The translations under genes and the position numbers were made by a program. The notes beneath the pieces are model-generated. The model saw only the letters and a list, made by a program, of their open reading frames with translations, searched no databases and was not told the DNA's origin. Shown here in pieces: positions 12,481-60,802 of a DNA stretch of 64,000 bases. The stretch is from Craspedostauros australis (Eukaryota; Bacillariophyta; Bacillariophyceae; Mastogloiales; Achnanthaceae). How positions within the stretch are numbered: the first letter of the stretch is position 1; each line of letters starts with the position of its first letter. The DNA is taken from positions 124,001 through 188,000 of the forward strand of contig JAMXDE010000070.1 in assembly GCA_026770025.1 (NCBI GenBank). Reading direction: 5' to 3'.

Positions 12481-13104
12481 ACACAAGTCTCTGGGAGAGA
12501 TCAAAGGTAAGGATATGGTTGGATGCAGGCGTGACATCGTATTGCACTTCGAACCATTCCAACTTCGTCAAACTGAGAGAACGAATCGATACTCCACCAA
12601 CGAACATTCACATCCACACTGACACTACCAATGACAAGGAAGGTGCATGACAGTGTCTCCTCGTTGTGATGGAGATTGTGCTTGTGCAGGTGCTTGCCCT
12701 TGTGTCAGGCCCGTTCAATTCCAGAGGATGGAATGTTGGCATTGCGTTGTATTGCATTGCATTGTACTGTAGACCCATCCATTGTGAGAAGGGGGTTGAT
12801 CGTGCCCACTCCAAATCCAACCAACTTCCATCCATCTCTCACAATCTGTCTTTCTCTTACCGCTCTTTTTTGAACTGTACCTGCTGCTCGTCGTATGCTG
12901 TTGCTTGTTGCTGAGCTTCGTCATCTCCGTCGTCTCTGTCGCGTTTTCTCTCATGACCATTCTCACTGATTCCTCAAGACGTGCAGCGCATATCCCACAG
13001 TGCTTTCCAACGTCACAGGAAGCCTGCAACCATCCACCCACACCATACAACAGACGACACCCCCAAGAGTTGGAACACCACACTCTGCAAGAACTGTTGC
13101 GACA

Positions 13105-26976: not shown

Positions 26977-29900
26977 ATGTCATTCAGTGCAATCAGGGCC
27001 GGCGGAGCCTCTGAGAAAGTGCCATACACCGAGTTCTGGTTCCTGAAGACTAATGCCGAGAACGAAAGGTTCATGGATTTGCGGGAGAAGGTCCTGAAGA
27101 CCTCCAAACCTATGAAATTCAAGGCCTTTGAGGAAGAGATGAGGTCTCTGTGTGATAAAGATGCTAAATTCAAGGATGCGCTCAACAAAGCACTCACGTT
27201 CGCGAAGAATCCTTCGGGTAACAAAAAACGCTTCGATAAGTCTAAAGACGAGAATGCGTGGATGTTGCAGATATTGGCGGCGATCTACCGTGCCATCAAG
27301 CTTGATCCACTCTTCAACGACTCCAAATTCTGGGACAGAGACTTGAAGCTACGCAAGGTGCGAAAAATGATAACTTCGGCGATCAAATCAAGCAAAGACA
27401 TCAGCGCAGCAGATAAAAAGACCATCAACGACATCGAAGACGCCAGGATGGAGACAATCAAAGTCATGACGAACCCCCCTGATGAGGGGGCCGCCAAGGC
27501 GTTATGGAACAAGGTTATTGGGTTTGTAGTCGAGATGAAGTCCTCCAATCCACTGCACCGATGGCTCACCGACCCCCATAATGTGAAGATCGTTTGCACC
27601 CTCAGACCCTTTTCCGAGATAAACGACGCCGTGCTCGACGCGCCGCTCCCGGTCATAACAACCAAATTGGATCAAGTTTATGCGAGTAGTTCCAGGGACA
27701 ATCTTCATCGCTTATTCTGCGATCCATGCCACGCCAACAACCAGAAGCTCTCGGCATTCTACATCGGCGATCTGGCTTTTCGACACAAGGGCAACACCAA
27801 CGCCCTCGGGACAGCCTATGTTCCAGATGGTGAGAACGAAGCTGGAAGCAGCGATCTGGTCCTTGTGTACTACTCGGGCAGCGGCAAAGGCAAGACGGTG
27901 GATATCGCAGCAAGCTCTGTGACCAGGAAGGCTGCTCTCACGATGGTACTGAAGATCGATGACGACATTTCGGACGGAATGGAGGAAGCTGCAAACCAAG
28001 CGCCGGATGCAACCAAAACGGTCCACGAAGTGGCGACAGAGATTCGGAAGAGATCGGCGTATAATGTGCTCGAGGAGGCCATGGTGCAAACGGCCGCACG
28101 ATCGAAGGCAGCAATTGACAAAGTTGTCGACTTCATCGAGACGATGAACAAATACCATCGAGCAAAAAACCCGCGTGTTCAGCTCACCGAAGCAGCAAAG
28201 AAGGTGATCAGAGTGGTCGTGGCCATCGATGAAGCATCCTTCCTCAAAGATATGTCTCAGTCCATTATTCGCCACCACACGAGCTTTGGAGAGCGCCTGG
28301 GGAAAGTCTTCATGAACCGGTGTGTGCGTGGCGAGGCAAAGCAGAATCCCAACGACCTATTCCGAGTCCACGTCGTCTTCTCCATCGCAGGGACGGGTGT
28401 GTACGGGATTGCTGTTGGATCTCAGCATGACAACTACCAGCTCGTCAAGACGATCGCAGAAAATCCGAATCACAAAAAGAATGTCTACAACGTCCTGTGT
28501 CACGAATACAGCTGCTATGCGTATTCATATGCCAAAAGATATCCACTCCCTAACTATGCTGATTTCGACAACTTCCCTCTTCTTCATACCATCGTCAACA
28601 ACAATTCGAGGATGACATCGATCTTGTTGAAGGAGATGAACGCCACCCCGTTCTCTCCCAAGTATCCACATGAGGAGGCCAGACTCTTGATCTGGGTCTT
28701 TGATGCGTTCATCGCAAGCAATTCGATGCGAACGCTTGAGAATTCTCCATCCGAAATGATGCTGACAGGAGCAAGGGCGATCGCTGTCTTCCTCTACCAA
28801 TCACCGTTCCATCCCCAAGAGCTCGAAGCGGAAGTCGCAACAAGCAAGTTTGCAGACATCGACTATGGCCTGGAATTCGAAAATTTCGAGACTGATCCCA
28901 AGTCTTCGAAAGGTGGAACCGACGAGAGAAAGGTCAGCAAGAAAATATTGATGTGGTTACTCGTCGCGAAGTTTGGTCTGGTGACACCAACTACCAACGA
29001 AGAAGATGCCAAGGCAGGACACAAGACAGTCTTGACCAATTCAATCCCCAAGCCTTTCGAAGTCGACGAGGCAATGTTGCTCTTGTCACTTTACATGGTG
29101 TCAGGGCGCGAGGCTGCAATGTCGATTGAAGCCTTCACGGGGACGACACCCTTCGCCATTGAGATGATGTCAACTCAGCTGATCAACTGCGCCATTGCCG
29201 CTGCCATGACAGTCAAGCTTGAGGAACGACTCCATCTCAACCTTCAACACATCCTGAAGACACACCTGGAGATTTACACCGACAGGTTGGGCAAGACAAC
29301 GGAGGAACATCCCGACGGCACACCTCTGCTTGTCAATGAAAGAATCCAAGAGGTATGGGAGAAACTTGCTCACTTCGTGCCAATTTCGTACAGCATCCCC
29401 CAAGCTCTCCAAGGTTCCTACCACCACAAGTCTAACTTCAACTTGGAAGTAGAGGATCCAACGAAAAGGGATACGGGAGTTATCATCAAGAAGCTGAAGC
29501 TGACGCCGAACGATGAGGGAGATCCCCAACTACGAGCGATCGAACGTGTGAATGATCGGTTTCGTCTTGAGCTTCGGCAGAAGACAGCCATCTTGACGAT
29601 CGACAATGATCTATCGAACAATATGCGCAAGGTGTTGAGGGACGTGAAGAAAGATCGGAAGCGTGTCAAAGCAAGGACTTTCAAGCTGCCTAGGTTGGGC
29701 GGGCCTGCCACAAAGCAGTTCTTTCCGCCAATCACAACCCTTCCGACTCGGACCAGCAACCTTGCCAACGGATACGTGTCTTGTGTTGGTGTCCAAATAA
29801 CACAAGAGGAAAAAGATGGTAAGCAGATCTTACGGGTCGAAGACCTCGATATCTTCACCATTTGCAACCAATCCCAAGACTATGTCGGAGCGGTGTCGTG

Positions 29901-30309
29901 TGCGGACCTTGAATTGAACATGAACAATGTGCACAACGAAATCCTGGACGAAGAGCTTGGGCGGCATCGCCTTTACTGTGTTTCGAGCCGATCCATCAGC
30001 TTCCCGAAAGCACCACAGCTTGAAGACGCGCGAATCCCTGTCGAATCGCTTCCTGTGGATAACGTGCGTCTACTTGCGGGGACCATGGCAAGATTGGAAA
30101 ACCTCCACAGCGACGGAGCGATGACACACAAATATGGAAAAACTCGCGTGAAGGTTTTGCGTCATCAACCAAACGCAGCTGTTGGCGTGGCCGAGCAGCC
30201 GCGCCGATCTTCAGATGGTGATGTAGGCAAGGACAATGGTGGAAGCATGGGCGACGATACAAGCATGGTCGATGCTTCAGCCTTGCCAGACCTGCACGAA
30301 GCCAGCTGA
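26977..30309 (+). CDS. Crinkler/RHS-like P-loop NTPase protein, long form
   Basis: 1110 residues in one uninterrupted frame. The N-terminus (SEKVPYTEFWFLK) is shared with the relic at 31860. Walker A is SGSGKGKT at about residues 298-310, in the context LVLVYYSGSGKGKT. Walker B is VIRVVVAIDEASF at about 409-421. VVFSIAGTG lies at about 467. The helical middle matches the protein at 13105 (NNSRMTS, TTPFAIE/TTPFAYE). The C-terminus (LANGYVSCVGVQ, LDIFTICNQ, HRLYCVSSRS) is the equivalent of the nuclease-like end at 1-930, again with a weak nuclease signature. It is probably functional as a protein, because the frame is intact over 3.3 kb. Its role is unknown; the family is seen in mobile-element hotspots and as secreted effectors in oomycetes. 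No signal peptide is visible here. Confidence 0.7.
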   Translation: MSFSAIRAGGASEKVPYTEFWFLKTNAENERFMDLREKVLKTSKPMKFKAFEEEMRSLCDKDAKFKDALNKALTFAKNPSGNKKRFDKSKDENAWMLQILAAIYRAIKLDPLFNDSKFWDRDLKLRKVRKMITSAIKSSKDISAADKKTINDIEDARMETIKVMTNPPDEGAAKALWNKVIGFVVEMKSSNPLHRWLTDPHNVKIVCTLRPFSEINDAVLDAPLPVITTKLDQVYASSSRDNLHRLFCDPCHANNQKLSAFYIGDLAFRHKGNTNALGTAYVPDGENEAGSSDLVLVYYSGSGKGKTVDIAASSVTRKAALTMVLKIDDDISDGMEEAANQAPDATKTVHEVATEIRKRSAYNVLEEAMVQTAARSKAAIDKVVDFIETMNKYHRAKNPRVQLTEAAKKVIRVVVAIDEASFLKDMSQSIIRHHTSFGERLGKVFMNRCVRGEAKQNPNDLFRVHVVFSIAGTGVYGIAVGSQHDNYQLVKTIAENPNHKKNVYNVLCHEYSCYAYSYAKRYPLPNYADFDNFPLLHTIVNNNSRMTSILLKEMNATPFSPKYPHEEARLLIWVFDAFIASNSMRTLENSPSEMMLTGARAIAVFLYQSPFHPQELEAEVATSKFADIDYGLEFENFETDPKSSKGGTDERKVSKKILMWLLVAKFGLVTPTTNEEDAKAGHKTVLTNSIPKPFEVDEAMLLLSLYMVSGREAAMSIEAFTGTTPFAIEMMSTQLINCAIAAAMTVKLEERLHLNLQHILKTHLEIYTDRLGKTTEEHPDGTPLLVNERIQEVWEKLAHFVPISYSIPQALQGSYHHKSNFNLEVEDPTKRDTGVIIKKLKLTPNDEGDPQLRAIERVNDRFRLELRQKTAILTIDNDLSNNMRKVLRDVKKDRKRVKARTFKLPRLGGPATKQFFPPITTLPTRTSNLANGYVSCVGVQITQEEKDGKQILRVEDLDIFTICNQSQDYVGAVSCADLELNMNNVHNEILDEELGRHRLYCVSSRSISFPKAPQLEDARIPVESLPVDNVRLLAGTMARLENLHSDGAMTHKYGKTRVKVLRHQPNAAVGVAEQPRRSSDGDVGKDNGGSMGDDTSMVDASALPDLHEAS

Positions 30310-46089: not shown

Positions 46090-47169
46090 CGTGTGTGTGC
46101 GCTGCTAGGGATGACTGTGTGTGTTGTCCTGATGGATGTCGGGGACCTTTACTCAAGATGTTTGTGCCCAATGAAGAACTCCCCTGTTTGCATTCTTTTG
46201 CGACAACCATTCTCGCAGAAGAGTTGACAGTTGAACTGCTTGAAGCGTTGGAGGAGACTGGTTTTGGTCATTTGTGACGCAAATTGGGTTTTGGAGGGTT
46301 GCGGTTTTATTATTGAAATGGATGTAGTTTCCATTGTGTCAATGGATTGGGAGTAGCGGTAGGTTATTTCTACGCACAGTTTGACTTCGCCTCACATTTC
46401 AGCGTGTTTGTGGTGAGATGTGATGGTGGTGGTTGTCCGTCCTCGACACTGGAGTCCTCACACCCACGCTCAGCTCCCAACAAGGCACGTTCCCAAAGGA
46501 GCAAGGTGTGGACTGTTTGTGGAAGAGAAGCGAGTGAGAGAGAAGCACGATAAGTGCATAATTGCTGTTGCTGTCTCGGTTCCCATGACACATGCGACGA
46601 GGAGCGATCAAGAATGAACATCAGAAATCAGACATGAGCCTCCTTGAAAGGAGGAGCGTGGGTGCGCGGGTGCACTAATGGGCGACTTTGTCTGCTCTTT
46701 AGCTCTCCCCTTGTGCCTCTTCATCCCACTCAGGGGTCACGTATAGTACAATGGTGGCTCCGCCATGCAAAGGTTTCGAACTTCGGGAGGGGGGAGGACG
46801 ACCAATGCTGCAGTGGTCGTTCCGCCTTTTCTGGAAATGTAATAGTAGTGTGCCTGGCATGTGACCTTCCTCGCCCATCGAATGTCATGCCGCGAACGAG
46901 AGTCATGAGCAAAGTTGTATTCGTGTAGTCATGGCGATGCAGTTCGATCAGAACTCTCGGTCAGAGATGGACACATAGAGAAGTAGCCTTGTGTTCTCGA
47001 TTGCGCTGATCCCTTGTACGGATCTCAAGTTGATGCGATCATAAAGACAGCACTCCGGATCGTACGAGCATGGCTGGTCCATCAACAACAAGCGAAAGCC
47101 ATCCACAGTACCATCTGCAACACACCACGATTTCACATCGCGATTTCACACCGCTCCACGCATTATGAT
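46090..47169. other. intergenic region
   Basis: About 1.1 kb between the methyltransferase start and the broken monooxygenase. No supported gene. A tRNA-like word at 46743-46790 was considered and rejected. Confidence 0.5.
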
Positions 47170-48042
47170 ATCCTCGGAACAGCAGCATCCAGAAAGATCT
47201 TCTTCGCAACGCCCATCTTGTCCACGATGAAGAAGAAAACATCCCGGGACTTGGCCAACGGCCCCGACAAGGCCTCCAGGTATGCCAGAAGACCACCGTC
47301 GTGGTGGCCGTGGTGGTGGACCGTTGCTTGTCCTTGTATTCTATCTGCAGGATGTCTTCAAGGCTGTTCCCGCCATTGGCTTATTCATCGCACTGCACAT
47401 TGTATTGCCAAATGGCATTGGTCAGACAGCAGGCGTCTTGGATGGCCTGATTGGTGCCCTGTCCCAGGAACGGTGGCATGGCGTGCGCCGCATCACCGCA
47501 GACAGTCAGGATGGCGGCCTTGTCTGCGCCGGTGCTTCCATTGCGGTTGGGATTGCGATTTCCGTTGATGGCCCTCATTGCCTTGGTCCATCGCGCAAAG
47601 GGTTTGTGGAAGTAGATCCCCAACTCGAAGAAAGAATCGGCATTGTCCATGAGTTGATTGATGATAGGCCTTGTGATGTGCTTGGCGATCTTGGCATCAT
47701 CGATCTACTGTCGCATCTGTTGCTGGATGCGTTTGGCCTCGGATGATGCCTTCCAAGCGACGGTCTCGTCGTTGGTGTCGATGGCGTCAGTTTTGCTGAC
47801 TGTCTCGAAATTTGCGCCAAGGAGAGACCGGCGATGCCACCACCGATAACTGCGACCTTCCGTATTGGTTGGCGACTCTCATTCCAACTCCCACTCCTAT
47901 TGCTGCTGCTGCTGCGTTGGAGTGAAGATGACGGGGATGGTGATGACAGTGAGTTCGTTGCCACCAACATGCAAGCGATGCAAATGGCACCAATCGTCCT
48001 CTTTTGATGCATCGGCCAAGCCGTTGCTGTCATTTCTGTCAA
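47170..48042 (-). pseudogene. broken FAD-dependent monooxygenase
   Basis: The minus strand starts with a leader (KRTIGAICIACMLVATNS) and the FAD-binding motif VAVIGGGIAGLSLA. About 100 residues later, in another frame, comes the second FAD motif of this family, ILTVCGDAAHAMPPFLGQG. Intact members have some 250-300 residues between the two, so roughly 200 are missing. The reading frame also changes after SLA. There is an in-frame stop between QQQMRQ and DDAKIAKHIT, another stop after QYNVQCDE, and a last recognisable piece (YLEALSGPLAKSRDVFFFIV) in yet another frame. I saw no introns that repair this. The leader part is duplicated at about 52800 and 57610, at the edges of the segmental duplication. 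Confidence 0.75.
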
Positions 48043-49043
48043 TGCTGCTGTTGCAGTGATTCTTCTGGTTGTGGCTGTCTCTGTGGTTGGGCGATCAATG
48101 AGTGAGGAACCAAGTCAACCAGCCGACAGTGTTCGAAGTCTCTCTAGAAATAGAGAGAGAGGGAGAGACGGAGCATTGACATGCTCTGTGAATAGTAGAT
48201 ACTTGATGGCAACGGTGATCATCATGTGAGTGTTGCAGTTGTGACGATCTGCATCAGTATTCTGCAGCGATGTCTGCAGCGCCACCACCATGGCCATCAT
48301 CATCGCCACAGAGTTCGCAACGATTGGGTGAAGCGAGATGAGTCCTGGATACGTTTGTTGTCGATTGAAACACGAGTGGTGTCATGCTCATCACCACCAT
48401 TGCCATGTTCCAACAAAACCCGAGAAACGACCCTGGCGCCCACCGAAGAAGTCATCGTGATGGATTCGTCGCATCGTGGATCTGCCCATTGCAGTCGTTC
48501 GATGACATCCAACTGCCGAAGCACATTGCATGCATTCGTATGGTCTCGCGGTTGACTCCCTCAAGACCATCACGGAGGGATGTGCCTTCTCAGATTACAC
48601 AAACAATGGTATCACATGAAGAAGCATAACTGCACAGCGTGGCCAAGTCGGGCACAATCGAAAGTCGCATCGTGCGAGCGAGCGAGCGAGTTAGCCAGCT
48701 TCGGGTTGTGATGTACCTGTCCACGGTCGTACTATCATGCCATACCACACCACACCACACCACGCCATATGATACACCGTGGTGGAACTGCGCAAGTCCA
48801 TGAAGGCGTGTTGACTGACGACACGTTGCTTCATGATCAATGCACAGGATCATGAAATGGAGGACAGCAAACTTGAGCAGATGAGCTCATAATCGCCATG
48901 CAAGCGCAGCTGATTTAGGACTGCATACTCTACCTGCTCTATCAGCTCTACTTGCTCTACTCGTACGATTGTACCACCAACAACAACAATCAACAACAAT
49001 CACCAGCAGTAAACACAGCAACCACAGCGACATTAAGAAAAGG
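48043..49043. other. spacer upstream of LRR-like gene 1
   Basis: Collinear with 52930-53920 and in part with 57725-58200. Contains GA-rich runs near 48145-48170 and no supported gene; small frames here are not conserved as frames between copies. It probably carries the promoter of the LRR-like gene. Confidence 0.5.
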
Positions 49044-50420
49044 ATGAACCGTAACATGGATGCTGTTGCCAACACCAATACCAACACCAACCATGATCCG
49101 GACTTCAAGACTTTCTGGAAACAACTCCATGGCAAAGAGCTGCCACCGAAGACCGTGTTCACTCTGCACTACCCACCAGAAAAGCAGATCGACTGCTACA
49201 GTGTCACACCCAAGCGGATGGAATACTGGGACATGGCCATCGAAGCAGGATTCACCTTTAATGACTTGGAATCGATGGTGAAGCGGCGGCACGAGCACGT
49301 TGCTGTATCACCTTGTATTTTACTGAGCGGTTTGCCTGGCTTGTGCTGCGGGCTGATGCACATTCGATCCCTGAGTCTGGATTATGGCACCATTGACCAA
49401 TTCGGAGAAGAAGACAAGCAAGTGATTCGCTTCGTACTTCGATTGGTTGCCGAACACCCACTCAAGTCTTCATTCGACAAAGGCATCGAATTGCCTCAAC
49501 GCTTCGTGGAGATGAAACAGCTCCACGATATCCCTCTTGTGACAAATTGTGTGCATTTGGATTCATGTGATCTTGTTGATTGCGACAAGCTCATGTTCAA
49601 CATCTCCCAAAACTCGAAATACGTTCAGTTCAGCGGCTGCAAGCTCGCCAATGGTGGCGCTGATTTGTGCAGATGGCTGTCTCCAAACAATTGTCGCGTC
49701 ACCAGAGTATCCATTTTACTCACCCGTGTCACTTGTGATAGCTTGGCAAAGCTATTCCGGTCAAACAAGCGCATCAACAAGCTCAACATCAGTTTCTGTC
49801 GGCTCACCGACAGACAACGAATCTACTCGCGACAAGAAATCGATCAGATCATCCAACTCCTTTCAGATGCATCACACCTGAAGGAGCTTTGGGTTGCCAA
49901 TGATTGTAAGGGGTTATCGCGACAAGAACGAGATACATGGGGCGACATTTTTATATCGCTACTGGGAAACAAGAGCTTGTCATATTTCGGATACCGGCGC
50001 TATGGTGCTCCCAGCATGTTTGAGGTTCCGCCCCAGATCTCCTCGACACAAATGGAAGCACTTGAGCAAGCCATGGAGCAGACTACCCAACTCACCTGTC
50101 TCCGCATTTCTCCAAGCCTGCCCAACAAACATGCCCATTGGTACCATGCACTTGTTGAACGTACCTTGCGTCGAAATTATCGCACCAAGATGAGTTCAAT
50201 GCCGCGTTCCCTTCCAACATGGTCGCGACCACTGGCCCTGTTTGGGGAGGTGCTGATGAGAATAAGCAAACGTCAGAGTAGACTTGATCCAGTGGGTTCC
50301 ACGAACGAGACTTTTCACATTCTGCTGCAGTGCAGTGACATGTTGAAACAGACGTGGGACGATCGTATTGCCGATCAGCAACGACCAGACACGACAGAAG
50401 AAATAGCGCCGCAGCGATAA
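49044..50420 (+). CDS. LRR-like protein, tandem copy 1
   Basis: 458 residues from MNRNMDAVAN; the upstream Met at 48969 is not shared by copy 2, while this one is. No signal peptide, so probably intracellular. After about 110 residues of non-repeat sequence there are irregular leucine-rich segments with strand-like words: IRSLSLDYG, CVHLDSCDL, KYVQFSGCKL, RVTRVSILLT, INKLNISFCRL, LKELWVANDC, LTCLRISPSL. The repeat is of the ribonuclease-inhibitor kind with variable spacing. The C-terminal tail is hydrophilic. No known family assigned. The protein differs from copy 2 mainly in four short patches at about residues 192-200, 217-228, 311-328 and 376-389, which fall on predicted strands. Confidence 0.75.
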   Translation: MNRNMDAVANTNTNTNHDPDFKTFWKQLHGKELPPKTVFTLHYPPEKQIDCYSVTPKRMEYWDMAIEAGFTFNDLESMVKRRHEHVAVSPCILLSGLPGLCCGLMHIRSLSLDYGTIDQFGEEDKQVIRFVLRLVAEHPLKSSFDKGIELPQRFVEMKQLHDIPLVTNCVHLDSCDLVDCDKLMFNISQNSKYVQFSGCKLANGGADLCRWLSPNNCRVTRVSILLTRVTCDSLAKLFRSNKRINKLNISFCRLTDRQRIYSRQEIDQIIQLLSDASHLKELWVANDCKGLSRQERDTWGDIFISLLGNKSLSYFGYRRYGAPSMFEVPPQISSTQMEALEQAMEQTTQLTCLRISPSLPNKHAHWYHALVERTLRRNYRTKMSSMPRSLPTWSRPLALFGEVLMRISKRQSRLDPVGSTNETFHILLQCSDMLKQTWDDRIADQQRPDTTEEIAPQR

Positions 50421-50861
50421 GATCATGGGCCTTCTGCCAGCGCAATGAAATTGGCAGCCAACTGGCCACACTAATGAAAGCGACGGAACTTGTGATTGGC
50501 GCTCGGTGTTCACAAAGCAAAGAAAGGTGTGTCGATGATTGATATCATACGATGCTGTATCACCTTAAACAACTGTAGGACAACTTCTCTCATCCAACTC
50601 CACTGACTGCAAGCGAGTCGAGTATGTCCATGCCCGTGCGCATTCCTGGAAAGACTACAAAACTGATGCATCTGCAACGACGAGAAACCGCCTCGCGCAG
50701 CGTCAACCAACAACACCAAACAAAGCAAAGAGAGTCACGATGATACTATTATACGATACTACTATTCGGGATACTCTATCTCCGACGATCGGCATGCTTG
50801 ACTTGCGGTCAACGAAAGTCAGAGGCGTCGGCAGCGAGAGTCGCAAAACAAAACTGATGTT
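50421..50861. other. spacer between LRR-like gene 1 and the acidic gene
   Basis: Convergent 3' region of about 440 bases, present in unit B at 55298-55715. No gene seen. Confidence 0.5.
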
Positions 50862-52458
50862 TCAGCCAGCCAGCACGACACCTGCTGCGATGCCACCGCC
50901 GATGATGAGGACAGCCGCGATGACGACGGGGACCATGATGTTGCTCTTGGTCGGTGCTGGTTCCTGCAACGTCGGCTTTGTGGTGGTGGTGGCCGTCTGT
51001 GCCTCAATGTCGACGTAATGCATGCTTGTGGTGTTGCCGGTGTCCTGCTCGACCACGTTCTTCAGATCGAGATGGTTGCTGGATCCCTTGGAGGGTCCGA
51101 TGGATTCTTTTCGCGTGAGCTGCTTGACTTGTGGATCTTGATTGGTGGTTTGCGCCGGATCAGTTGTGGGAGTCATGGGAGTGATGGATATTTCAATGGA
51201 GTTGGTGCGCGAGACGAGCTGGGTGGGCATGTCCTCGTTGGTGTCGTTGGTCTCGTTGAGGAGGATGGCGGAATGAGTGGATTGGCTTTTGTCCAAAACC
51301 ACCCCGGCTGAAGCGGAACTGCCGCTCATGAGGCGGTTGGCGGATGTGGAGATGTACGTTGACGCTGGGTCTTTGGCGGAAGGTGGATCCTCACCGTCCA
51401 TGTCCATGTCCACATTGCTGTGGTTGGATTCCTTGGAAAGGGAGTTGGTGGAGTCCTGGTTGCCGTGGTTGCTGGTCGATGAATTGGAGGTTGCGGCCGT
51501 GCGCTGGGTACCGTCATTTTTTGGCGGAGACCATGGAAGAGAAGAGCCCGGAATCCCCATTGGAATGGGCACCGAATTCGCCTGGCTTGCGTTTGTTGGC
51601 AGTTCTGGTGGACGGTCGCTCCGTCTCGTCGCCCTCCTCGCCTTCGACGACAGACTCCAGTCCACCTTCCTGGCGGATGGAGGACATCCTCTTGGCGGAG
51701 GAGAAGCCGAAGGACGAGATCCCCGTTGGAGGAGGCGTTGGGGCTGTCCTGGACGGCGCGGTGGTGGCGGTGGTGGGAGATGTTCCGATCGGGCGTGGGC
51801 GCTGGTCGGATGTGGAACGGAATTCGTCATGAAAGGAGTCGTCTCGCATGGAGTCGTCCTCGTCTGTGAACTCGTCGAAGCCTCCATCGGTCGTCTTGTC
51901 GGTCATCTTGTCGCCCGCCTCCTCATCGGAACACTGGCTCTCGATGTCGTCATCGTCATCGTCGATGATGTGGATGTCGTCATCTATCTGCTGCGTGTTG
52001 GCGCCAGCACCCGCGCTGACATCGTGACTCTGGCTGTGACTGCGACTGCGGCTGTTGGCGTCGGCACCCTCATCGTCGTCGCTGTTGTCGCTGTCAATGT
52101 CGTCGTCCAGGCCTTCCTCCAAGCCTTCGTCGAAGGGCTCCTCGTCGCTGTCCGCCACCCTCGCACTGATGGAGTCCACCATGTCGGCGTCGAAGTCCTG
52201 CTGCGAGTGCATGGAGAACTCTGCCTCATTGTCATCGCTGTACACGGTCTGCTGCTGGCTGCCCAGGTCGTCCATGTACTTGGCGGTGTAGGCGGAAGCG
52301 TGGCCAGTGGGCAATGATGCTGCCGATGACGACATGGAGCTTGGTGGTGATGGCGCAGAGTTGCGGCCGTACTGGTGACCGGTCTTGCGTTCAATGCCGG
52401 ACGTGGAGGAGGACGACCGTGAAGCCTTGCTGGTGAACGGGAATCTGTTGTCTTCCAT
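50862..52458 (-). pseudogene. acidic C-terminally anchored protein, tandem copy 1 (one frameshift)
   Basis: Starts MEDNRFPFTSK at 52458. The first half is Ser/Asp-rich with an acidic core (DDDIHIIDDDDDDIESQ). The second half is Ser/Thr/Asn-rich and ends in a membrane helix (IMVPVVIAAVLIIGGGIAAG) right at the C-terminus, as in tail-anchored proteins. The frame breaks at VSAKK, where this copy has a run of six T (plus strand, about 51517-51523) against five in copy 2, and then continues open to the stop at 50862. A one-base homopolymer difference could be an assembly error, so the gene may be intact in the organism. Function unknown. Spans about 530 residues if read through. Confidence 0.6.
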
Positions 52459-53920
52459 CGATTTGTGTTGTCTTCTGTTGCCTTGTATTGTGTTGTTTTG
52501 GGAATGATCTGCTCTGTTGCTTCGTTCAATCGTTCAATCGCACAATGATCGATGCTCAATGTTGAATGTTGAATGGACGGCCTGTTGCGACGAACGTGAT
52601 TGCCGATGGCGCAGTATCCAATGTCCAATATCCAATGGTGGATCTACTCTCTCTCTCTCCAGCGATTCTTGAGGCAACGGGGTGATGCGATGGGATACAC
52701 AATGTGGTTGATGTTGATGATGGTGTCGCCGTTGCGATTGTTGAGCCTGTCAAAGGAAATGGCTGTCAGTGGTTCTCAATCCACAACGGAAGAAAAGTGT
52801 CGGGGATGGCGATGACAGTGAGTCCGTTGCCACCACCATGGACGCGATGTAGATGGCACCAATCATCCTCTATTGATGCATCAACCACATCGTTGGTGTC
52901 AATGCTGCCATTGCTGTGATTCCTCTGGTTGCGGTTGTCTCTGTGGTTGGGCGATCATTGAGTGAGGAACCAAGTCAACCAGCCGGCATCGTTCGAAGTC
53001 TCTCTCAAGAAGCAGAGAGAGAGAGAGAGTGTTGGCATAGTAGTACGTGCTCTGTGAATAGTAGATACTTGATGGCAACGGTGATCATCATGTGAGCATT
53101 GCGGTTGTGACGATCTGCGTCAGTATTCTGTAGCGATGTCTGCAGCGCCACCACCATGACCATCATCGTCATCACGAAATGAATCGTTTTGCACACGTTC
53201 GTTGTTGATCATGAGACTGATCGTTGATTCATTCGCCACAGAGATCGCAATGATTGAGTGAGGCGAGATGAGTCCTGGATACGTTTGTGGCGAATTGAAA
53301 CACGAGTGGTGTCATGCTCATCATCACCATCGCCATGCTCCAACAAAACGCGAGAAACGCCTTCGGTGTCCACCGAAGGAATCGTTGTGGTGAGTTTTGC
53401 ACATCGTGGATCTGCCCATTGGAACTGTTCGATGACATCCAAATGCCGAAGCACATAGTATTCATTCGTATGGTATCGCGGTTGACTCCCCCAAGACCAT
53501 CACAGAGGGATGTGCCTTCTCAGATTACACAAACAATGGTATCGTATCACATGAAGAAGCGCAAGCGCGCAGCGTGGCCAAGTTGGGCACCATCGAAGGT
53601 CGTATCGTGCGAGCGAGCTTGCCAGCTTCGGATCATGATGTGGCTGTCCACGGTCGTACCATACCACACCACGCATCGTGGTGGAACTCCGCATGCCCAT
53701 CCAGGCGCGTTGACTGACGACACGTTGCTTCGTGATCAATGCACAGGATCATGAAATGGGGGACAGCAAACTTGAGCAAATGAGCTCACAATCGCCATCC
53801 AAGCGCAACTGATTTGGGACCACATACTCTGCCTGCTCTGTAGCTCTACTCGTACGATTGTGCCACCAACAACAATAATCAACATCAATCAGCAGTGACG
53901 ATAACAACGACAAGAAAAGA
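52459..53920. other. junction between duplication units A and B
   Basis: Holds the 5' flank of the acidic gene, a CT run near 52646-52660, and at about 52795-52870 a fragment equal to the leader of the broken FAD monooxygenase. Beyond that it is the spacer of unit B. No intact gene. Confidence 0.6.
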
Positions 53921-55297
53921 ATGAACCACAACATGGATGCTGTTGCCAACACCAATACCAACAGTGACCATGATCCGGACTTCAAGACTTTCTGGAAACA
54001 ACTCCATGGCAAAGAGCTGCCACCGAAGACCGTGTTCACTCTGCACTACCCACCAGAAAAGCAGATCGACTGCTACAGTGTCACACCCAAGCGGATGGAA
54101 TACTGGGACATGGCCATCGAAGCAGGATTCACTTTTCATGACTTGGAATCGATGGTGAAGCGGCGGCACGAGCACGTTGCTGTATCACCTTGTATTTTAC
54201 TGAGCGGTTTGCCTGGCTTGTGCTGCAGGCTGATGCACATTCGATCCCTGAGTCTGGATTATGGCACCATTGACCAATTCGGAGAAGAAGACAAGCAAGT
54301 GATTCGCTTCGTACTTCGATTGGTTGCCGAACACCCACTCAAGTCTTCATTCGACAAAGGCATCGAATTGCCTCAACGCTTCGTGGAGATGAAACAGCTC
54401 CACGATATCCCTCTTGTGACAAATTGTGTGCATTTGGATTCATGTGATCTTGTTGATTGCGACAAGCTCATGTTCAACATCTCCCAAAACCCGAAATACG
54501 TTCGGTTCGGTGACTGCAAGCTCGCCAATGGTGGCGCTGATTTGTGCAGATGGCTGTCTCCAAACAATTGCAGCGTCACCGGAGTATCCATTTTATTCAC
54601 CCGTGTCACTTGTGATAGCTTGGCAAAGCTATTCCGGTCAAACAAGCGCATCAACAAGCTCAACATCAGTTTCTGTCGGCTCACCGACAGACAACGAATG
54701 TACTCGCGACAAGAAATCGATCAGATCATCCAACTCCTTTCAGATGCATCACACCTGAAGGAGCTTTGGGTTGCCAATGATTGTAAGGGGTTATCGCGAC
54801 AAGAACAAGATACATGGGGCGACATTTTTATATCGCTTCTGGGAAACAAGAGCTTGTCATCTCTGGCATACTGTTACTATGCGGAGCCTGGCAGAACTTA
54901 TGTTCCGCCCCAGATCTCCTCGACACAAATGGAAGCACTTGAGCAAGCCATGGAGCAGACTACCCAACTCACCTGTCTCCGCATTTCTCCAAGCCTGCCC
55001 AACAAACATGACCATTGGTACCATGCGCTTGTTGAACGTATCTTGCGTCGAAATCATCGCAACAAGGTGAGAGCAGTGCTGTGCTCCCTTCCAACATGGT
55101 CACGACCACTGGCCCTGTTTGGGGAGGTGCTGATGAGAATAAGCAAACGTCAGAGTAGACTTGATCCAATGGGTTCCACGAACGAGACTTTTCACATTCT
55201 GCTGCAGTGCAGTGACATGTTGAAACAGACATGGGACGATCGTCGTGCCGATCGGCAACGACCAGACACAACAGAAGAAATAGCGCCGCAGCGATAA
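53921..55297 (+). CDS. LRR-like protein, tandem copy 2
   Basis: 458 residues, same length as copy 1, with very few changes outside four patches. Compare KYVRFGDCKL with KYVQFSGCKL, SVTGVSILFT with RVTRVSILLT, and SLAYCYYAEPGRTYV with YFGYRRYGAPSMFEV. The third patch is replaced almost completely at the DNA level (54856-54904) while both sides are near-identical. Same features as copy 1: no signal peptide, irregular LRRs, hydrophilic ends. The frame is intact, so both copies are probably expressed proteins. The pattern recalls specificity-determining surfaces in LRR receptors, but that is inference. Confidence 0.75.
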   Translation: MNHNMDAVANTNTNSDHDPDFKTFWKQLHGKELPPKTVFTLHYPPEKQIDCYSVTPKRMEYWDMAIEAGFTFHDLESMVKRRHEHVAVSPCILLSGLPGLCCRLMHIRSLSLDYGTIDQFGEEDKQVIRFVLRLVAEHPLKSSFDKGIELPQRFVEMKQLHDIPLVTNCVHLDSCDLVDCDKLMFNISQNPKYVRFGDCKLANGGADLCRWLSPNNCSVTGVSILFTRVTCDSLAKLFRSNKRINKLNISFCRLTDRQRMYSRQEIDQIIQLLSDASHLKELWVANDCKGLSRQEQDTWGDIFISLLGNKSLSSLAYCYYAEPGRTYVPPQISSTQMEALEQAMEQTTQLTCLRISPSLPNKHDHWYHALVERILRRNHRNKVRAVLCSLPTWSRPLALFGEVLMRISKRQSRLDPMGSTNETFHILLQCSDMLKQTWDDRRADRQRPDTTEEIAPQR

Positions 55298-55715
55298 GAT
55301 CATGGGCCTTCTGCCAGCGCAATGAAATTGGCAGCCAACTGGCCACACTCGTGAAAGCGACGGAGCTTCTGATTGGCGCTCGGTGTTCACAAAGCAAAGA
55401 AAGGTGTGTCGATGATTGATGCGGTACTGTATCACCTTAAACAACTGTAGGACAACTACTCTCGTCTATCTCCACTGACTGCAAGCGAGTCGAGTATGTC
55501 CATGCCAGTGCGCGTTCCTGGAAAGACCACAAAACTGATGCATCTGCGATGACGAGAAACCACGCAACGTCAAACAAAGCAACGAGAGTCACCATGATAC
55601 TATTATACGATACTACTATTTGGAATACTCTATCTCCGACGATCGGCATGCTTGACTCGCGGTCAACGAAAGTCAGAGGCGTCGGCAGCGAGAGTCGCAA
55701 AACAAAACTGATGTT

Positions 55716-57255
55716 TCAGCCCGCCAGCACGACGCCTGCTGCAATGCCACCGCCGATGATGAGGACAGCCGCGATGACGACGGGGACCATGCTGTTGCTT
55801 TTGTTCGGTGCTGGTTCCTGCAACGTCGGCTTTGTGGTGGTGGTGGCCGTCTGTGCCTCAATGTCGACGTAATGCATGCTTGTGGTGTTGCCGGTGTCCT
55901 GCTCGACCACGTTCTTCAGATCGAGATGGTTGCTGGATCCCTTGGAGGGTCCGATGGATTCTTTTCGCGTGAGCTGCTTGACTGGTGGATCTTGGGTGAT
56001 GGTTTGCGCCGGATCAGTTGTGGGAGTCATGGGAGTGATGGATATTTCGATGGAGTTGATGCGCGAGACGAGCTGGGTGAGCATGTCCTCGTTGGTGTCG
56101 TTGGTCTCGTTGAGGAGGATGGCGGATGTGGAGATGTACGTTGACGTTGGGTCTTTGGCGGAAGGTGGATCCTCACCATCCATGTCCATGTCCATGTCCA
56201 TGTCCACATTGCTGCGGTTGGATTCCTTGGAAAGGGAGTTGGTGGAGTCCTGGTTGCCGTGGTTGCTGGTCGATGAATTGGAGGTTGCGGCCGTGCGCTG
56301 GGTGCCGTCATTTTTGGCGGAGACCATGGAAGAGAAGATCCCGGAATCCCCATTGGAATGGACACCGAATTCGCCTGACTTGCGTTTGTTGACAGTTCTG
56401 GTGGATAGTCGCTCCGTCTCGTCGCCCTCCTCGCCTTCGACGACAGACTCCAGTCCACCTTCCTGGCGGATGGAGGACATCCTCTTGGCGAAGGAGAAGC
56501 CGAAGGACGAGATCCCCGTTGGAGGAGGCGTTGGGGCTGCCTCTGGCCGGCTGGGACGTCCTGGACGGCGCGGTGTTGGGAGATGTTCCGATCGGGCGTG
56601 GAGGCTGGTCGGATGTGGAACGGAATTCGTCACGAAAGGAGTCGTCTCGCATGGAGTCGTCCTCGTCTGTGAACTCGTCGAAGCCTCCATCGGTCGTCTT
56701 GTCGGTCATCTTGTCGCCCGCCTCCTCATCGGAACACTGGCTCTCGATGTCGTCATCGTCATCGTCGATGATGTGGATGTCGTCATCTATCTGCTGCGTG
56801 TTGGCGCCAGCACCCGCGCTGACATCGTGACTCTGGCTGTGACTGCGACTGCGACTGTTGGCGTCGGCACCCTCATCGTCGTCGCTGTTGTCGCTGTCAA
56901 TGTCGTCCAGGCCTTCGTCCAAGCCTTCGTCGAAGGGCTCCTCGTCGCTGTCCGCCACCCTCGCACTGATGGAGTCCACCATGTCGGCGTCGAAGTCCTG
57001 CTGCGAGTGCCTGGAGAACTCTGCCTCATTGTCATCGCCGTACACGGTCTGCTGCTGGCTGCCCAGGTCGTCCATGTACTTGGCGGTGTAGGCGGAAGCG
57101 TGGCCAGTGGGCGATGATGCTGCCGATGACGACATGGAGCTTGGTGATGGCGCAGAGTTGCGGCCGTACTGGTGGCCGGTCTTGCGTTCAATGCCGGAGG
57201 TGGAGGAGGACGACCGTGAAGCCTTGCTGGTGAACGGGAATCTGTTGTCTTCCAT
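55716..57255 (-). pseudogene. acidic C-terminally anchored protein, tandem copy 2 (one frameshift)
   Basis: Starts MEDNRFPFTSK at 57255, like copy 1. The frame is open to about 56560, where this copy carries a 19-base insertion (plus strand, around CCTCTGGCCGGCTGGGACG) and a nearby 9-base deletion relative to copy 1. From there the coding sequence continues in another frame through ISSFGFSFAKRMSSI and SAKNDGTQRT to the membrane helix and stop at 55716. This copy is whole at the site where copy 1 is shifted. The two lesions are therefore independent. It also lacks about 60 bases found in copy 1 (around 51260-51330) and has an extra DMDM repeat. Confidence 0.6.
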
Positions 57256-58350
57256 CGATTTGTGTTGTCTTCTGTTGCCTTGTATTGTGTTGTTTTGGGA
57301 ATGATCTGCTCTGTTGCTTCGTTCAATCGTTCAATCGCACAATGATCGATGCTCAATGTTGAATGTTGAATGGACGGCCTGTTGCGACTAACGTAATTGC
57401 TGATGGCGCAGTATCCAATGTCCAATGTCCAATATCCAATGGTGGATCTACTCTCTCTCTCTCTCTCCAGCGATTCTTGAGGCAACGGGGTGATGCGATG
57501 GGATACACAATGTGGTTGATGTTGATGATGGTGTCGCCGTTGCGATTGTTGAGCCTGTCAAAGGAAATGGCCGTCGGTGGTTCTCAATCCACGACGGGAG
57601 GAAAGTGTCGGGGATGGTGATGACAGTGAGTTCGTTGCCACCAACATGCACGCGATGAAGATGACACCAATCATCCTCTTTTGATGCATCAACCACATCG
57701 TTGGTGTCAATGCTGCCATTGCTGTGATTCTTCTGGTTGCGGTTGTCTCTGTGGTTGCGCAATCATTGAGCGAGGAACCAAGTCAACCAGCCGACAGTGT
57801 TTGAAGTCTCTCTCTCGAAGCTGAGAGAGAAACGAGAGAGAGAGTGTTGGTATCGTACTCGGTGGATAGACACTTGATGGAGACAGTGATCATCATGTGA
57901 GTGTTGCGGTTGTGACGATCTGTATCAGTATTCTGCAGCGATCTCTGCAACAGCAGCACCACCGTGGCCATCATCGTCATCATGGGCACAAAATGAATCG
58001 TCTCTCACACGTTCCATGTTGAACACAGGTCGGTCTTTGGTTCGTCCACCACTGATTGTTCCTCGTGACGGTTGTGTGAGACGAGATGAGTCCTGGATAC
58101 GTTTGTTGTCGATTGAAACACGAGTGGTGTCACCATCGTCATTGTCGTCATCCTCTTGACAAAACACGAGAAACGCCTCTGCAAGGCACGGGAATTCCGC
58201 TGAAACTGTCACACGTTCGCATTCGACCACTCTGACTAATCATCAACTTCGTACGTGACTTGATTGGAACGACTCAACACTCGGAGTATATCCACAATGA
58301 TAACGTATATAACCGTTTAATGTTTGAAATCCGAACACCATCTACCCCGT
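57256..58350. other. right edge of the segmental duplication
   Basis: Contains the acidic gene's 5' flank, a CT run near 57450-57468, a third copy of the monooxygenase leader fragment at about 57605-57680, and a partial third spacer that stops matching near 58170-58200. No gene. Confidence 0.55.
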
Positions 58351-58859: not shown

Positions 58860-59820
58860 CACCACACACATGACAAGCAGCCAAGGAGGAAGAACCACCA
58901 GCAGCAGCACAGCAACCATCGCGAACATCCAAGGAGGAGGAAGCGAGAGCGCAGGAGCATGGCAATCATCGCAAGCAAGCAAAGAGGAGGAAGCCAGCGA
59001 GGGGGAAGCATGGGTGGCAGCACAGCAACTATCGCAAGCAGCCAGGGAGGAGGAGGAAGCATGGGCAGCAGCACAGCAACCATTGCAAGCAGCCATGGAG
59101 GAGCAAGCCGGCGAGGAGGAATGGCGAGCAGTGGCACCACAACCATCGCGAGCAGCCGAGGTGGAGGCAGCATACGCAGCAGCGCAGCGACCATCTCGAC
59201 CAGCCAAAGAGGAGGAAGCCAGCGAGGAGGAAGAAGGCGAGGAGGAACGACGATCAGCGGCACAGCAACCATCGCAAGTATCCGAAGAGGAGGAAGCACG
59301 GCCAGCAGCACAGCAACCACCACGAGCAGCCGAGGAGGAAGAAGCCGGCGAGGAAGAACGGCAGACAGCAGCACAGCAACCATCACAAGCAGCCAAAGAG
59401 GAGGAAACCAACGAGCGGGAACGGCGAGCAGCGATTCAGCAACTGTCGCGAGTAGCCAAGGAGGAGTTGCAAGCAGAAGCACAGCAACCATCGCAAGCAG
59501 ACGAGGAGGAGAAGGCTCAGTCAGCACAACAACGATCGCAAGCAGCCGAAGAGGAGGAATCCAACAAGGAGGAATGGCGAGCAGCGGCACAGCAACCATC
59601 GCAGGCAGCCGAGGAGCAACCACAAGCACCAGCATCACAACCATCACAAACATCCGAGGAGGAAGCCAGCAAGGAGGAACCACGAGCAGCAGTACAGCAA
59701 CCGTCGCAAGCAGCCGAAGAGGAGGAAGCCAACGAAGAGGAACGGCAAGCAGCGACACAGCAACCATCACGAGCAGCCAAGAAGGAAGTGCGGACAGCAG
59801 TACGGCAACCAACACAACAA
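58860..59820. repeat. large minisatellite with three long open frames
   Basis: About 15 diverged units of 45-66 bases built around CAGCAACCATCGCAAGCAGCCGAGGAGGAAG. Because the units lack stops, two plus frames and one minus frame stay open for 300 codons or more: an Ala/Gln/Glu-rich frame, a Gly/Ser/Thr-rich frame (in phase with the transposase) and a Leu/Val/Ala-rich minus frame. I regard these as products of the repeat unless expression is shown. Confidence 0.8.
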
Positions 59821-59825
59821 CAGAC

Positions 59826-60802
59826 ATGGAATTCTTGGACAGCGATGAAGTGCTTGCGCTTGGCCTGGAGTATGCCGGTTTTCATCAGACGAAGATGGCT
59901 AGCAGAACCAAGCAGACTCGTTTTGCTGCAACATACGGTCTGTGCCCTGAAAGCTTTGCTTCTCTCTTTGTCGATCTTTCTAACATTCAAACACACCAAT
60001 TCAAACAGCCACGTCCACATGATCTCTTTGTTGTCTTGAACTGGCTGAAGACATACTGCACAGAGCATGTGATGGCTGGTCGCTGGTGCTTAGACGAGAA
60101 AACCATCCGCGGTCTCATTTGGTCGTACCTGCCGGCCATTCAATCTCTGCTTCCAAACAAGGTAAGTGAAACAAAGCTCATACTGGAGCGGATATTTCAT
60201 GTGCTTTGCTCGAGCTGATCCTCTCATTCCAATATTACTTTCCATTCATTCCGATCCCTCATCATCAGGTCATCTGGCCACCAAATACAGCGGAGCTCAC
60301 AGGAGATGACAAGCACTTCATCATTACTGTTGACGGTGTTCATATCAAGATCCACGAACCGAGGATGGATCCAGGAGCAAAGTGGTACTCCCACAAGTCG
60401 CACTCGGCCGGACTGACATATGAGCTTGGGATATCACTCACAGAGAGCAAGCTGGTGTGGATCAATGGTCCATTTCCGGCTTCAACTTCAGATCTTGTGA
60501 TGTATCGCAAGCCAGGCGGTCTCAAATCCAAGATCCCACCAAATGCCCTGGTGATTGCAGATGGGGGGTACAACAACGAGCCCACAATCAGTGCCCCAAA
60601 TCCGTGCGATTCTGCTGCTGTGAGGAAGTTCAAGAACAGAGCAAGAGCACGGCATGAGAGCTTCAACGGGAGGATAAAGAATTTCAGGGCACTCGCGGGC
60701 GGCTACCGGAACCAACTGCACAAGCATCAGTGCTTATTTGAGACATGCTGTGTTCTGATTCAGTATGAGCTCGACAATGGGCACCCGATATTCGATATCT
60801 AA
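59826..60802 (+). CDS. PIF/Harbinger-type DDE transposase (DDE_Tnp_4 class)
   Basis: Two exons, 59826-60161 and 60269-60802, 289 residues from MEFLDSDEVL. Exon 1 codes a helical N-terminal part with a likely DNA-binding region (FKQPRPHDLFVVLNWLKTYC, EKTIRGLIWSYL). Exon 2 holds the catalytic core: first Asp in ITVDGVHIKI, second Asp in LVIADGGYNNEP, and the Glu in RARHESFNGRIKNF. SHSAGLTYELGIS and WINGPFPASTSDLVMY are family-typical, so the triad is complete and the gene may be active. The frame is also open upstream through the minisatellite to 58959, which would add a Gly/Ser/Thr-rich N-terminus of 289 residues; I prefer the short form. It cuts and joins DNA at element ends. Confidence 0.85.
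60162..60268 (+). other. intron of the transposase gene
   Basis: 107 bases, AACAAG|GTAAGT to CATCAG|GTCATC, phase 0. It joins LLPNK to VIWPPN just before the DDE core. Confidence 0.85.

What the first reader, a model, noticed from the sequence alone, without database searches (positions are those of the whole stretch)
49044..55297. Recently duplicated LRR-like genes that differ almost only on predicted LRR strands
The two 458-residue copies are near-identical for hundreds of bases, yet four short patches differ strongly: about residues 192-200, 217-228, 311-328 and 376-389. Three of these lie on strand-like words of the repeat (KYVQFSGCKL, RVTRVSILLT, SLSYFGY). At 49979-50027 versus 54856-54904 the DNA is almost completely replaced while flanks are conserved. 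This is the signature of diversification of a binding surface, by selection or by conversion from another copy, and suggests a recognition system.
Basis: partly seen in the sequence, partly recalled or inferred. Interest (0 to 1): 0.8.

Follow-up and report, generated by a model that had tools for sequence, protein, structure and literature searches.

The report
Hypervariable LRR gene repertoire, probably diatom
The two genes belong to a family of about ninety related copies, mostly in rows along the genome of what is probably a diatom, in which the scaffold of a repeat protein stays constant while its likely binding face differs between copies, as in known recognition repertoires.

Summary
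Two 458-aa copies differ at 59 of 1377 nt, clustered in patches. They are not an isolated pair: the same 74.8-Mb genome gives 102 matches to the N-terminal domain, 92 after removing contig overlaps, mostly in head-to-tail arrays. Of 45 full-length copies held, 34 distinct intact ones were aligned. In eight LxxLxLxx units the buried positions average 0.3-0.5 bits of amino-acid entropy, the exposed strand positions 1.9-2.3. Thirty-two distinct copies carry 32 different 24-residue exposed faces. At hypervariable sites, changes in eight recent pairs are skewed to non-synonymous (pN/pS 2.08, p=0.003); low-entropy sites give 0.58. Copies recombine (PHI, 0 of 500 permutations). Patch 4 is a short conversion tract, probably into B, and is not on a strand; patch 3 has no close donor in the assembly. 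The two copies match no Pfam family; no viral or prokaryotic relative was found. Best reading: a germline repertoire of intracellular-looking LRR recognition proteins, diversified by selection plus paralogue exchange. Ligand, expression and function are unknown.

The parts
49044..50420 (+). Copy A: 458-aa LRR-like protein, one uninterrupted frame
   Evidence: intact; no Pfam match at E 1
53921..55297 (+). Copy B: 458-aa LRR-like protein, one uninterrupted frame
   Evidence: 59 nt and 38 aa differences from A; no Pfam match at E 1
47924..52800 (.). Tandem unit 1 (about 4.85 kb) carrying copy A and a minus-strand neighbour frame; ends approximate
   Evidence: direct repeats spaced about 4.8-4.9 kb; aligned profile
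52793..57980 (.). Tandem unit 2 carrying copy B; ends approximate
49101..49328 (+). Copy A conserved N-terminal domain (aa 20-95), no known family
   Evidence: probe window:49095-49355 found 102 places in the genome
49362..50165 (+). Copy A LRR region (about aa 107-374): eight LxxLxLxx words starting at aa 107, 167, 191, 219, 244, 279, 312 and 350, with hypervariable exposed positions
   Evidence: low-confidence models put strands on four of these words
49617..49643 (+). Patch 1 in A (aa 192-200): exposed positions 195, 197, 198 of the word at 191
   Evidence: 4 of 27 nt differ
49692..49727 (+). Patch 2 in A (aa 217-228): word at 219, exposed position 226
   Evidence: 4 of 36 nt differ
49974..50027 (+). 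Patch 3 in A (aa 311-328): strand word at 312 and the following loop; no close donor found in the assembly
   Evidence: 20 of 54 nt differ; best other match 84% of 74 nt
50169..50210 (+). Patch 4 in A (aa 376-389): after the last strand word, not a strand; the form also found in C13:1290990
   Evidence: 41 of 42 nt identical to C13:1290990
54494..54520 (+). Patch 1 in B
54569..54604 (+). Patch 2 in B
54851..54904 (+). Patch 3 in B; best other match 81% of 74 nt
55046..55087 (+). Patch 4 in B: probable conversion tract carrying the commoner family form between flanks that match C13:1290990
   Evidence: 40 of 42 nt as in C13:1849546 but 34 of 42 as in C13:1290990; flanks 85/90 and 148/150 as in C13:1290990
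50862..52458 (-). Unit-1 neighbour: acidic, low-complexity frames ending in one hydrophobic segment; two overlapping frames, so spliced or broken
   Evidence: part of the unit, link to the LRR gene unknown
55716..57255 (-). Unit-2 copy of the same neighbour

Best explanation
A and B are two members of a repertoire of about 90 mostly tandemly arrayed genes for soluble-looking LRR proteins, probably of ribonuclease-inhibitor-like type. Shown: a conserved N-terminal domain, eight LRR words and a conserved C-terminal part form a fixed scaffold; exposed strand residues differ between copies; copies exchange short tracts; copies sit head to tail in units of about 3.5-5 kb. Inferred: the exposed residues form one concave face that binds many different or fast-changing ligands (parasite, virus, bacterial or non-self proteins); duplication supplies copies, exchange reshuffles patches and homogenises the scaffold, and diversifying selection keeps new faces; the conserved N- and C-terminal parts pass binding to a common output.
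For: Family size and arrays: 102 N-terminal places, 71 of 72 neighbouring pairs on one strand, median spacing 4491 nt. Motif-phased entropy by LxxLxLxx position: 0.37 0.48 1.07 0.31 2.33 0.49 2.31 1.87; exposed versus other LRR-region residues p=7e-11. 32 of 32 distinct copies have different exposed faces, median 17 of 24 positions differing (minimum 2), core 3 of 24. Eight independent recent pairs: hypervariable sites chosen from the other copies, pN/pS 2.08 (binomial p=0.003), low-entropy sites 0.58, Fisher p=3e-6. Motif-chosen exposed sites pN/pS 2.38 with kappa 3, p=0.0067. Exposed residues rich in S, F, N, D, Y, H and poor in L, I, V, M, Q. Recombination: PHI 0 of 500; B's patch 4 follows another copy than its flanks do; C68:199294 has the N-terminal part of C68:194588 and a different C-terminal part (translations, by eye; this copy has an internal stop). 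No strongly hydrophobic N-terminus in 34 copies. Top structural rows mostly LRR proteins.
Against: Models are poor (pLDDT 36), so the concave face is motif-based. With equal rates the motif-chosen exposed sites give pN/pS 1.77, p=0.065. In the same close pairs the rest of the gene is 0.9-1.3 and the core 1.25-1.54 on 16 changes, so part of the variation may be relaxed constraint. Conversion breaks the independence that these tests assume. 20 of 95 matched copies have a stop inside; 10 of 45 held copies were dropped for that, 7 of them with the stop in the last 8 or fewer matched residues. No expression, ligand, allele or population data. In only 11 of 42 difference clusters does a form match another held intact copy at 97% or more, so visible exchange does not explain most patches.
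Confidence: 0.78

Rival explanations
1. Relaxed constraint: a decaying, over-amplified family in which exposed strand residues vary because only the buried framework is needed for folding.
For: 20 of 95 matches have internal stops; outside the exposed sites pN/pS in close pairs is about 0.9-1.3.
Against: Stretches between strands, part of which must be surface, have mean entropy 0.15-0.60. Hypervariable sites exceed pN/pS of 1 while low-entropy sites are at 0.58; over all 496 pairs core sites are 0.55-0.68. 35 of 45 held copies keep the frame. Exposed positions favour S, F, N, D, Y, H.
Confidence: 0.1
2. Adaptor repertoire: substrate receptors of a ubiquitin ligase or a similar machine, with the LRR choosing targets, like rapidly evolving F-box families (recalled); the selected function is destruction of foreign or selfish proteins rather than signalling.
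For: Cytosolic-looking LRR with conserved non-LRR ends; SKP2, FBXL17 and Rad7 LRRs are among the structural rows.
Against: No F-box, BTB or SOCS family among the ten Pfam families matched by any of 34 members at E 0.1; structural rows concern the LRR part only.
Confidence: 0.3
3. Self or mate recognition: the variable faces distinguish individuals or mating partners and not parasites.
For: Two LRR receptor-like kinases are among the positively selected genes regulated in diatom sex (PMC5485032, passages); the same signature serves allorecognition in fungi (PMC1805685, passages).
Against: No membrane or secretion segment shared by the copies (2 of 34 reach hydropathy 1.6, both in the window), which cell-cell recognition would normally need; about 90 loci is many for one locus-pair system.
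Confidence: 0.15
4. Targeted mutation: a mechanism that randomises chosen nucleotides (like a diversity-generating retroelement) makes the patches.
For: Many hypervariable codons keep one third base in all or nearly all copies while bases 1 and 2 vary; patch 3 has no close donor in either form.
Against: Simulated selection on a low neutral background gives equal or lower third-base change (0.15-0.20 at omega 12-20, observed 0.268); variable sites are spread over eight repeats. No template or reverse transcriptase was looked for.
Confidence: 0.05
5. Assembly artefact: patches come from collapsed or chimeric repeats.
For: Contig ends break in these arrays and overlapping pieces differ by small gaps, so local errors exist.
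Against: Both patch-3 forms keep the frame without gaps, and the same sites vary in other copies on many contigs.
Confidence: 0.04

Closest known systems
Highly variable plant NLRs (hvNLRs; PMC8226289, passages read)
   Same: Gene clusters; periodic entropy spikes above 1.5 bits at exposed LRR strand positions; exchange among paralogues. The published cut of 10 positions above 1.5 bits is passed here by 97 of 458 positions, though between paralogues and not between alleles.
   Different: No NB-ARC, TIR or coiled-coil NLR family among the Pfam matches of 34 members; variation measured inside one genome; about 458 aa.
Brown-algal LRR-ROCO candidate immune receptors (PMC11378527, passages read)
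   Same: Photosynthetic stramenopile candidate receptors whose selected sites lie on the concave side of the LRR.
   Different: There each repeat is an exon that is shuffled and alternatively spliced beside ROC-COR; here the LRR is in one uninterrupted frame with no ROC-COR match, and diversity sits between about 90 gene copies.
Fungal NWD/HNWD allorecognition genes (PMC1805685, passages read)
   Same: Multigene family with sequence exchange, homogenised repeat framework, and selection on a few exposed positions per repeat.
   Different: WD repeats with a NACHT core, 10 genes; here LRR, about 90 genes, no such core found.
Tandem LRR expansions in the diatom Seminavis robusta (PMC7335047, passages read)
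   Same: Diatom LRR families grown by tandem duplication.
   Different: The passages I saw report no hypervariable exposed sites or exchange between copies; whether this family is among them is unknown.
Lamprey variable lymphocyte receptors (PMC3900441, start of abstract in a listing)
   Same: LRR scaffold with diversity produced by a conversion-like process.
   Different: Made in lymphocytes (recalled); here only germline copies are seen.

Membership tests
LRR superfamily, ribonuclease-inhibitor-like type | Several LxxLxLxx words with conserved hydrophobic positions, separated by helices | tested here: met
   Eight words with core entropy mean 0.39; predicted strands on four of them alternate with helices, at low confidence
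LRR superfamily, ribonuclease-inhibitor-like type | Match to a curated LRR sequence model at E 0.001 or better | tested here: not met
   A and B: no family at E 1. Best LRR model is LRR_R13L1-DRL21, 8 of 34 members at E 0.1, best E 0.016
LRR superfamily, ribonuclease-inhibitor-like type | Horseshoe fold | tested here: inconclusive
NLR receptors (hvNLR) | NB-ARC or NACHT domain | tested here: not met
   No such Pfam family in 34 members at E 0.1; an unrecognised divergent domain cannot be excluded
NLR receptors (hvNLR) | Ten or more sites above 1.5 bits, periodic in the LRR | tested here: met
   97 of 458 sites; motif-phased; measured on paralogues, not alleles
LRR-ROCO receptors | ROC-COR domains | tested here: not met
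   No match in 34 members at E 0.1
LRR-ROCO receptors | One LRR per exon, shuffled | tested here: not met
   LRR region lies in one uninterrupted frame
F-box/LRR adaptors | F-box | tested here: not met
   No Pfam match in 34 members at E 0.1
Cell-surface LRR receptors | Signal peptide and transmembrane segment | tested here: inconclusive
   Hydropathy only: 2 of 34 copies (maximum 1.85, copy A at 86-104) reach 1.6; N-terminal 35 residues at most 0.03; no signal-peptide predictor available
Diversity-generating retroelement target | Template copy and reverse transcriptase nearby | not tested
   Only the codon-position pattern was examined

The most novel reading that the evidence does not exclude
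A diatom carries an antigen-receptor-like repertoire: about ninety stand-alone intracellular LRR proteins whose binding faces are renewed by a patch-wise process (templated micro-exchange plus something that creates donor-less patches), possibly fast enough to differ between strains or even cell lines.
Probability: 0.15. Interest if true: 0.92.

Novelty: new variant of a known kind. Interest (0 to 1): 0.74.

Why it matters
How single-celled algae recognise viruses, parasites or each other at the molecular level is largely open (recalled). A family of about 90 genes with a constant scaffold and a copy-specific exposed face names the candidate molecules and the exact residues to test. It also offers another solution beside plant NLRs and brown-algal shuffled-exon ROCO receptors: a bare LRR whose diversity is stored as tandem germline copies. 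In recent pairs differences arrive as short clusters, and many of these have no close match among the copies examined, which makes the source of new faces a testable question.

Tried and rejected
Subtelomeric (VSG- or var-like) location: suggested by many copies near contig ends, rejected as evidence because fetched pieces of C68 and C43, and of C13 and C35, overlap at 99.7-99.9% identity; the ends look like assembly breaks inside arrays. The full extent of the overlaps is extrapolated, and so is the removal of 10 of 102 places.

DGR-like randomisation: hypervariable codons vary mainly at bases 1 and 2, but simulated selection with calibrated neutral divergence gives as little or less third-base change; kappa there (11.4) came from 25 four-fold sites and is rough.

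Old patches kept while the framework is homogenised: synonymous diversity is slightly higher within 4 codons of hypervariable codons (0.130 and 0.114) than at 5-19 codons (0.07-0.09), near versus far p=0.08, but highest at 20 or more codons (0.155, 11 codons); overall correlation p=0.29. Not resolved.

IQ-TREE codon omegas (30 exposed codons 3.4; conserved codons 0.54; all codons 20-399 1.29; all but the exposed 1.11): kept as supporting only, because one tree is assumed and the kappa estimates for the small set were degenerate; the 30 codons differ a little from the 24.

Sequence search of solved structures with the 34-row profile gave four rows, best E 0.28, no LRR protein. Pfam gave, for single members, LmeA (2 of 34, E 0.0018) and SipB (2 of 34, E 0.0053), taken as chance. 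Viral and prokaryotic collections, searched by two peptide patterns: 30 and 9 pattern matches, none confirmed. Paper searches for such a family in diatoms (one search listed 20 of 109) showed none that describes it, by titles, abstract starts and the passages read; the species is unknown, so prior description is not excluded.
Full report
The sequence. Neighbouring frames with long Ser/Thr/Pro stalks, and the gene style, suggest a pennate diatom; this is recall and inference, no tool named the organism. Copy A (49044-50420) and copy B (53921-55297) are uninterrupted 458-codon frames with 59 nt differences. They lie in two tandem units of about 4.85 kb that share a minus-strand neighbour. Divergence along the unit is uneven: 4-24 substitutions per 100 columns upstream of the gene, 0-2 in several gene blocks, 22 in the block with patch 3, 12 in that with patch 4, and mostly 0-6 in the neighbour with one block of 13 and two large gaps.

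Check of the claim. The 59 differences are clustered (21 in 64 nt; maximum of 5000 random placements 13). The patches hold 25 of 38 aa differences, 17 of them in the three strand patches, and 7 of 38 hit exposed strand positions. Within this pair, dN/dS is not informative: pS 0.051, pN 0.041 over the gene.

The family. The copy-A protein found 92 matches and a second member 95. The N-terminal domain found 102 matches among 104 candidates, all scored, so the count may be near complete. Clustering at 25 kb gives 30 places, seven of them single; 71 of 72 neighbours share a strand; 56 of 72 spacings are 3-5.5 kb. Removing 10 entries in overlapped contig ends leaves 92, including degraded and distant ones. 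Distant relatives at C35:617335, C25:255310 and C2:77585 (47, 39 and 27% identity) keep the same architecture. A and B match no Pfam family at E 1; over 34 members the best LRR model reaches E 0.016. No relative was found in viral or prokaryotic collections by two-pattern searches.

What was aligned. Of 45 full-length copies held, 10 were dropped for an internal stop (7 of them with the stop in the last 8 or fewer matched residues) and 1 as an exact duplicate; 34 were aligned. Tests on distinct copies used 32, after two near-identical ones were set aside. Copies not fetched (about half) are not in any diversity figure.

Where the variation is. Entropy over 34 copies is 2 bits or more at 46 of 458 sites and 1.5 or more at 97. 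Eight LxxLxLxx words were assigned from the conserved hydrophobic residues. By position their mean entropy is 0.37 0.48 1.07 0.31 2.33 0.49 2.31 1.87. The 24 exposed positions average 2.17, the 24 core positions 0.39 and the other 248 residues of the region 0.73 (p=7e-11). Stretches between the strands average 0.15-0.60. The words were placed after seeing the alignment, which favours low core values; the contrast between exposed strand residues and the stretches between strands depends on that less. A further variable stretch lies at 96-100, before the first word. All 32 distinct copies have different 24-residue faces, from 2 to 22 differences apart, median 17. Exposed positions are rich in Ser, Phe, Asn, Asp, Tyr and His.

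Selection. In eight independent recent pairs, with sites classed by the entropy of the other copies, hypervariable sites have 125 non-synonymous and 16 synonymous changes (pN/pS 2.08, p=0.003), middle sites 1.12 and low sites 0.58. With motif-chosen sites the figures are 1.77 (p=0.065, equal rates) and 2.38 (p=0.0067, kappa 3); in the same pairs the rest of the gene is 0.9-1.3 and the core 1.25-1.54 on 16 changes. Over all 496 pairs of 32 copies core sites are 0.55-0.68, exposed sites 1.5-2.05 and other LRR-region sites 0.77-1.00. Four-fold sites in the framework (25) differ by only 0.084 between copies, against 0.57 and 0.53 at bases 1 and 2 of hypervariable codons; a simple simulation needs omega of about 12-20 to match. 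Conversion, a single tree and the kappa estimate make that number rough; omega above 1 is the safer statement.

Exchange. The PHI statistic is 0.599 against 0.684 +/- 0.006 for permuted sites (0 of 500 as low), and stays below all 500 permutations when codons of 1.5 bits or more are left out. Patch 4 is the clearest tract. Both A and B follow C13:1290990 on either side (86 and 85 of 90 nt before, 149 and 148 of 150 after), although that copy is only 85-86% identical to them overall. Inside the patch A still follows it (41 of 42 nt), while B has 34 of 42 and instead matches C13:1849546 at 40 of 42; of 32 other copies 26 are closer to B's form there and 4 to A's. So a tract of about 40 nt was probably converted in B. 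C68:199294 joins the N-terminal part of C68:194588 to a different C-terminal part (by eye). In seven recent pairs differences fall in 42 clusters; in 11 of 42 at least one form has a match of 97% or more among the other intact copies. Patch 3 has no close match to either form in the assembly (best 84% and 81% of 74 nt, flanks included). Exchange is therefore real but does not supply most variable patches from the copies that can be seen.

Interpretation. Shown: a large, mostly tandem LRR-like family; a constant scaffold with variable exposed strand residues; excess non-synonymous change there; exchange between copies. Inferred: a binding face under diversifying selection, hence a recognition repertoire. 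Open: ligand, cell compartment, output, expression, and whether diversity renews within a lineage. It works like hvNLRs (PMC8226289), brown-algal LRR-ROCOs (PMC11378527) and fungal NWD genes (PMC1805685) but fails the domain tests for the first two and shows no NACHT or WD match for the third, so it is not filed as a member. Tandem LRR expansion in diatoms is known (PMC7335047); I saw no report of this signature in them in the searches listed.

Noticed in passing
50862-52458 and 55716-57255 (-): Neighbour of each LRR copy: acidic, Ser/Asp-rich frames ending in a hydrophobic segment; frames shift between its N and C halves in several units (spliced or broken). Of 14 sources looked at, 6 (window, C68 twice, C45, C5, C13) show it at E 1e-10 and 8 do not, so only part of the arrays carry it.
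   Followed up: partly
47054-47897: Block about 1.1-2 kb upstream of copy A recurs at 79-88% identity beside many family copies (40 places scored, the window's own included); its minus-strand frame has a GGGIAGLSLA word like a flavin-binding motif (recalled), no Pfam match.
   Followed up: partly
13000-15708 and 26977-30309 (+): Two long frames that look related by eye, with P-loop-like words (GTGKT, GSGKGKT) and a shared VVAIDEA word; no Pfam match at E 0.01.
   Followed up: no
58870-60218: Low-complexity Ala/Glu/Gln-rich repeat region, eight copies of a 128-nt unit at 61-78% to the reference copy, open in several frames.
   Followed up: no
C9:1674132, 1678620, 1683108: Three family copies spaced exactly 4488 nt with identical scores: probably a very recent array expansion.
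   Followed up: no
L024 (C43:10000-17500) versus L022 and L023: The same stretch on two overlapping contigs: a family frame broken at C43:11527 but intact at the matching place C68:194588; such breaks may be assembly errors, so some internal stops may be artefacts.
   Followed up: partly
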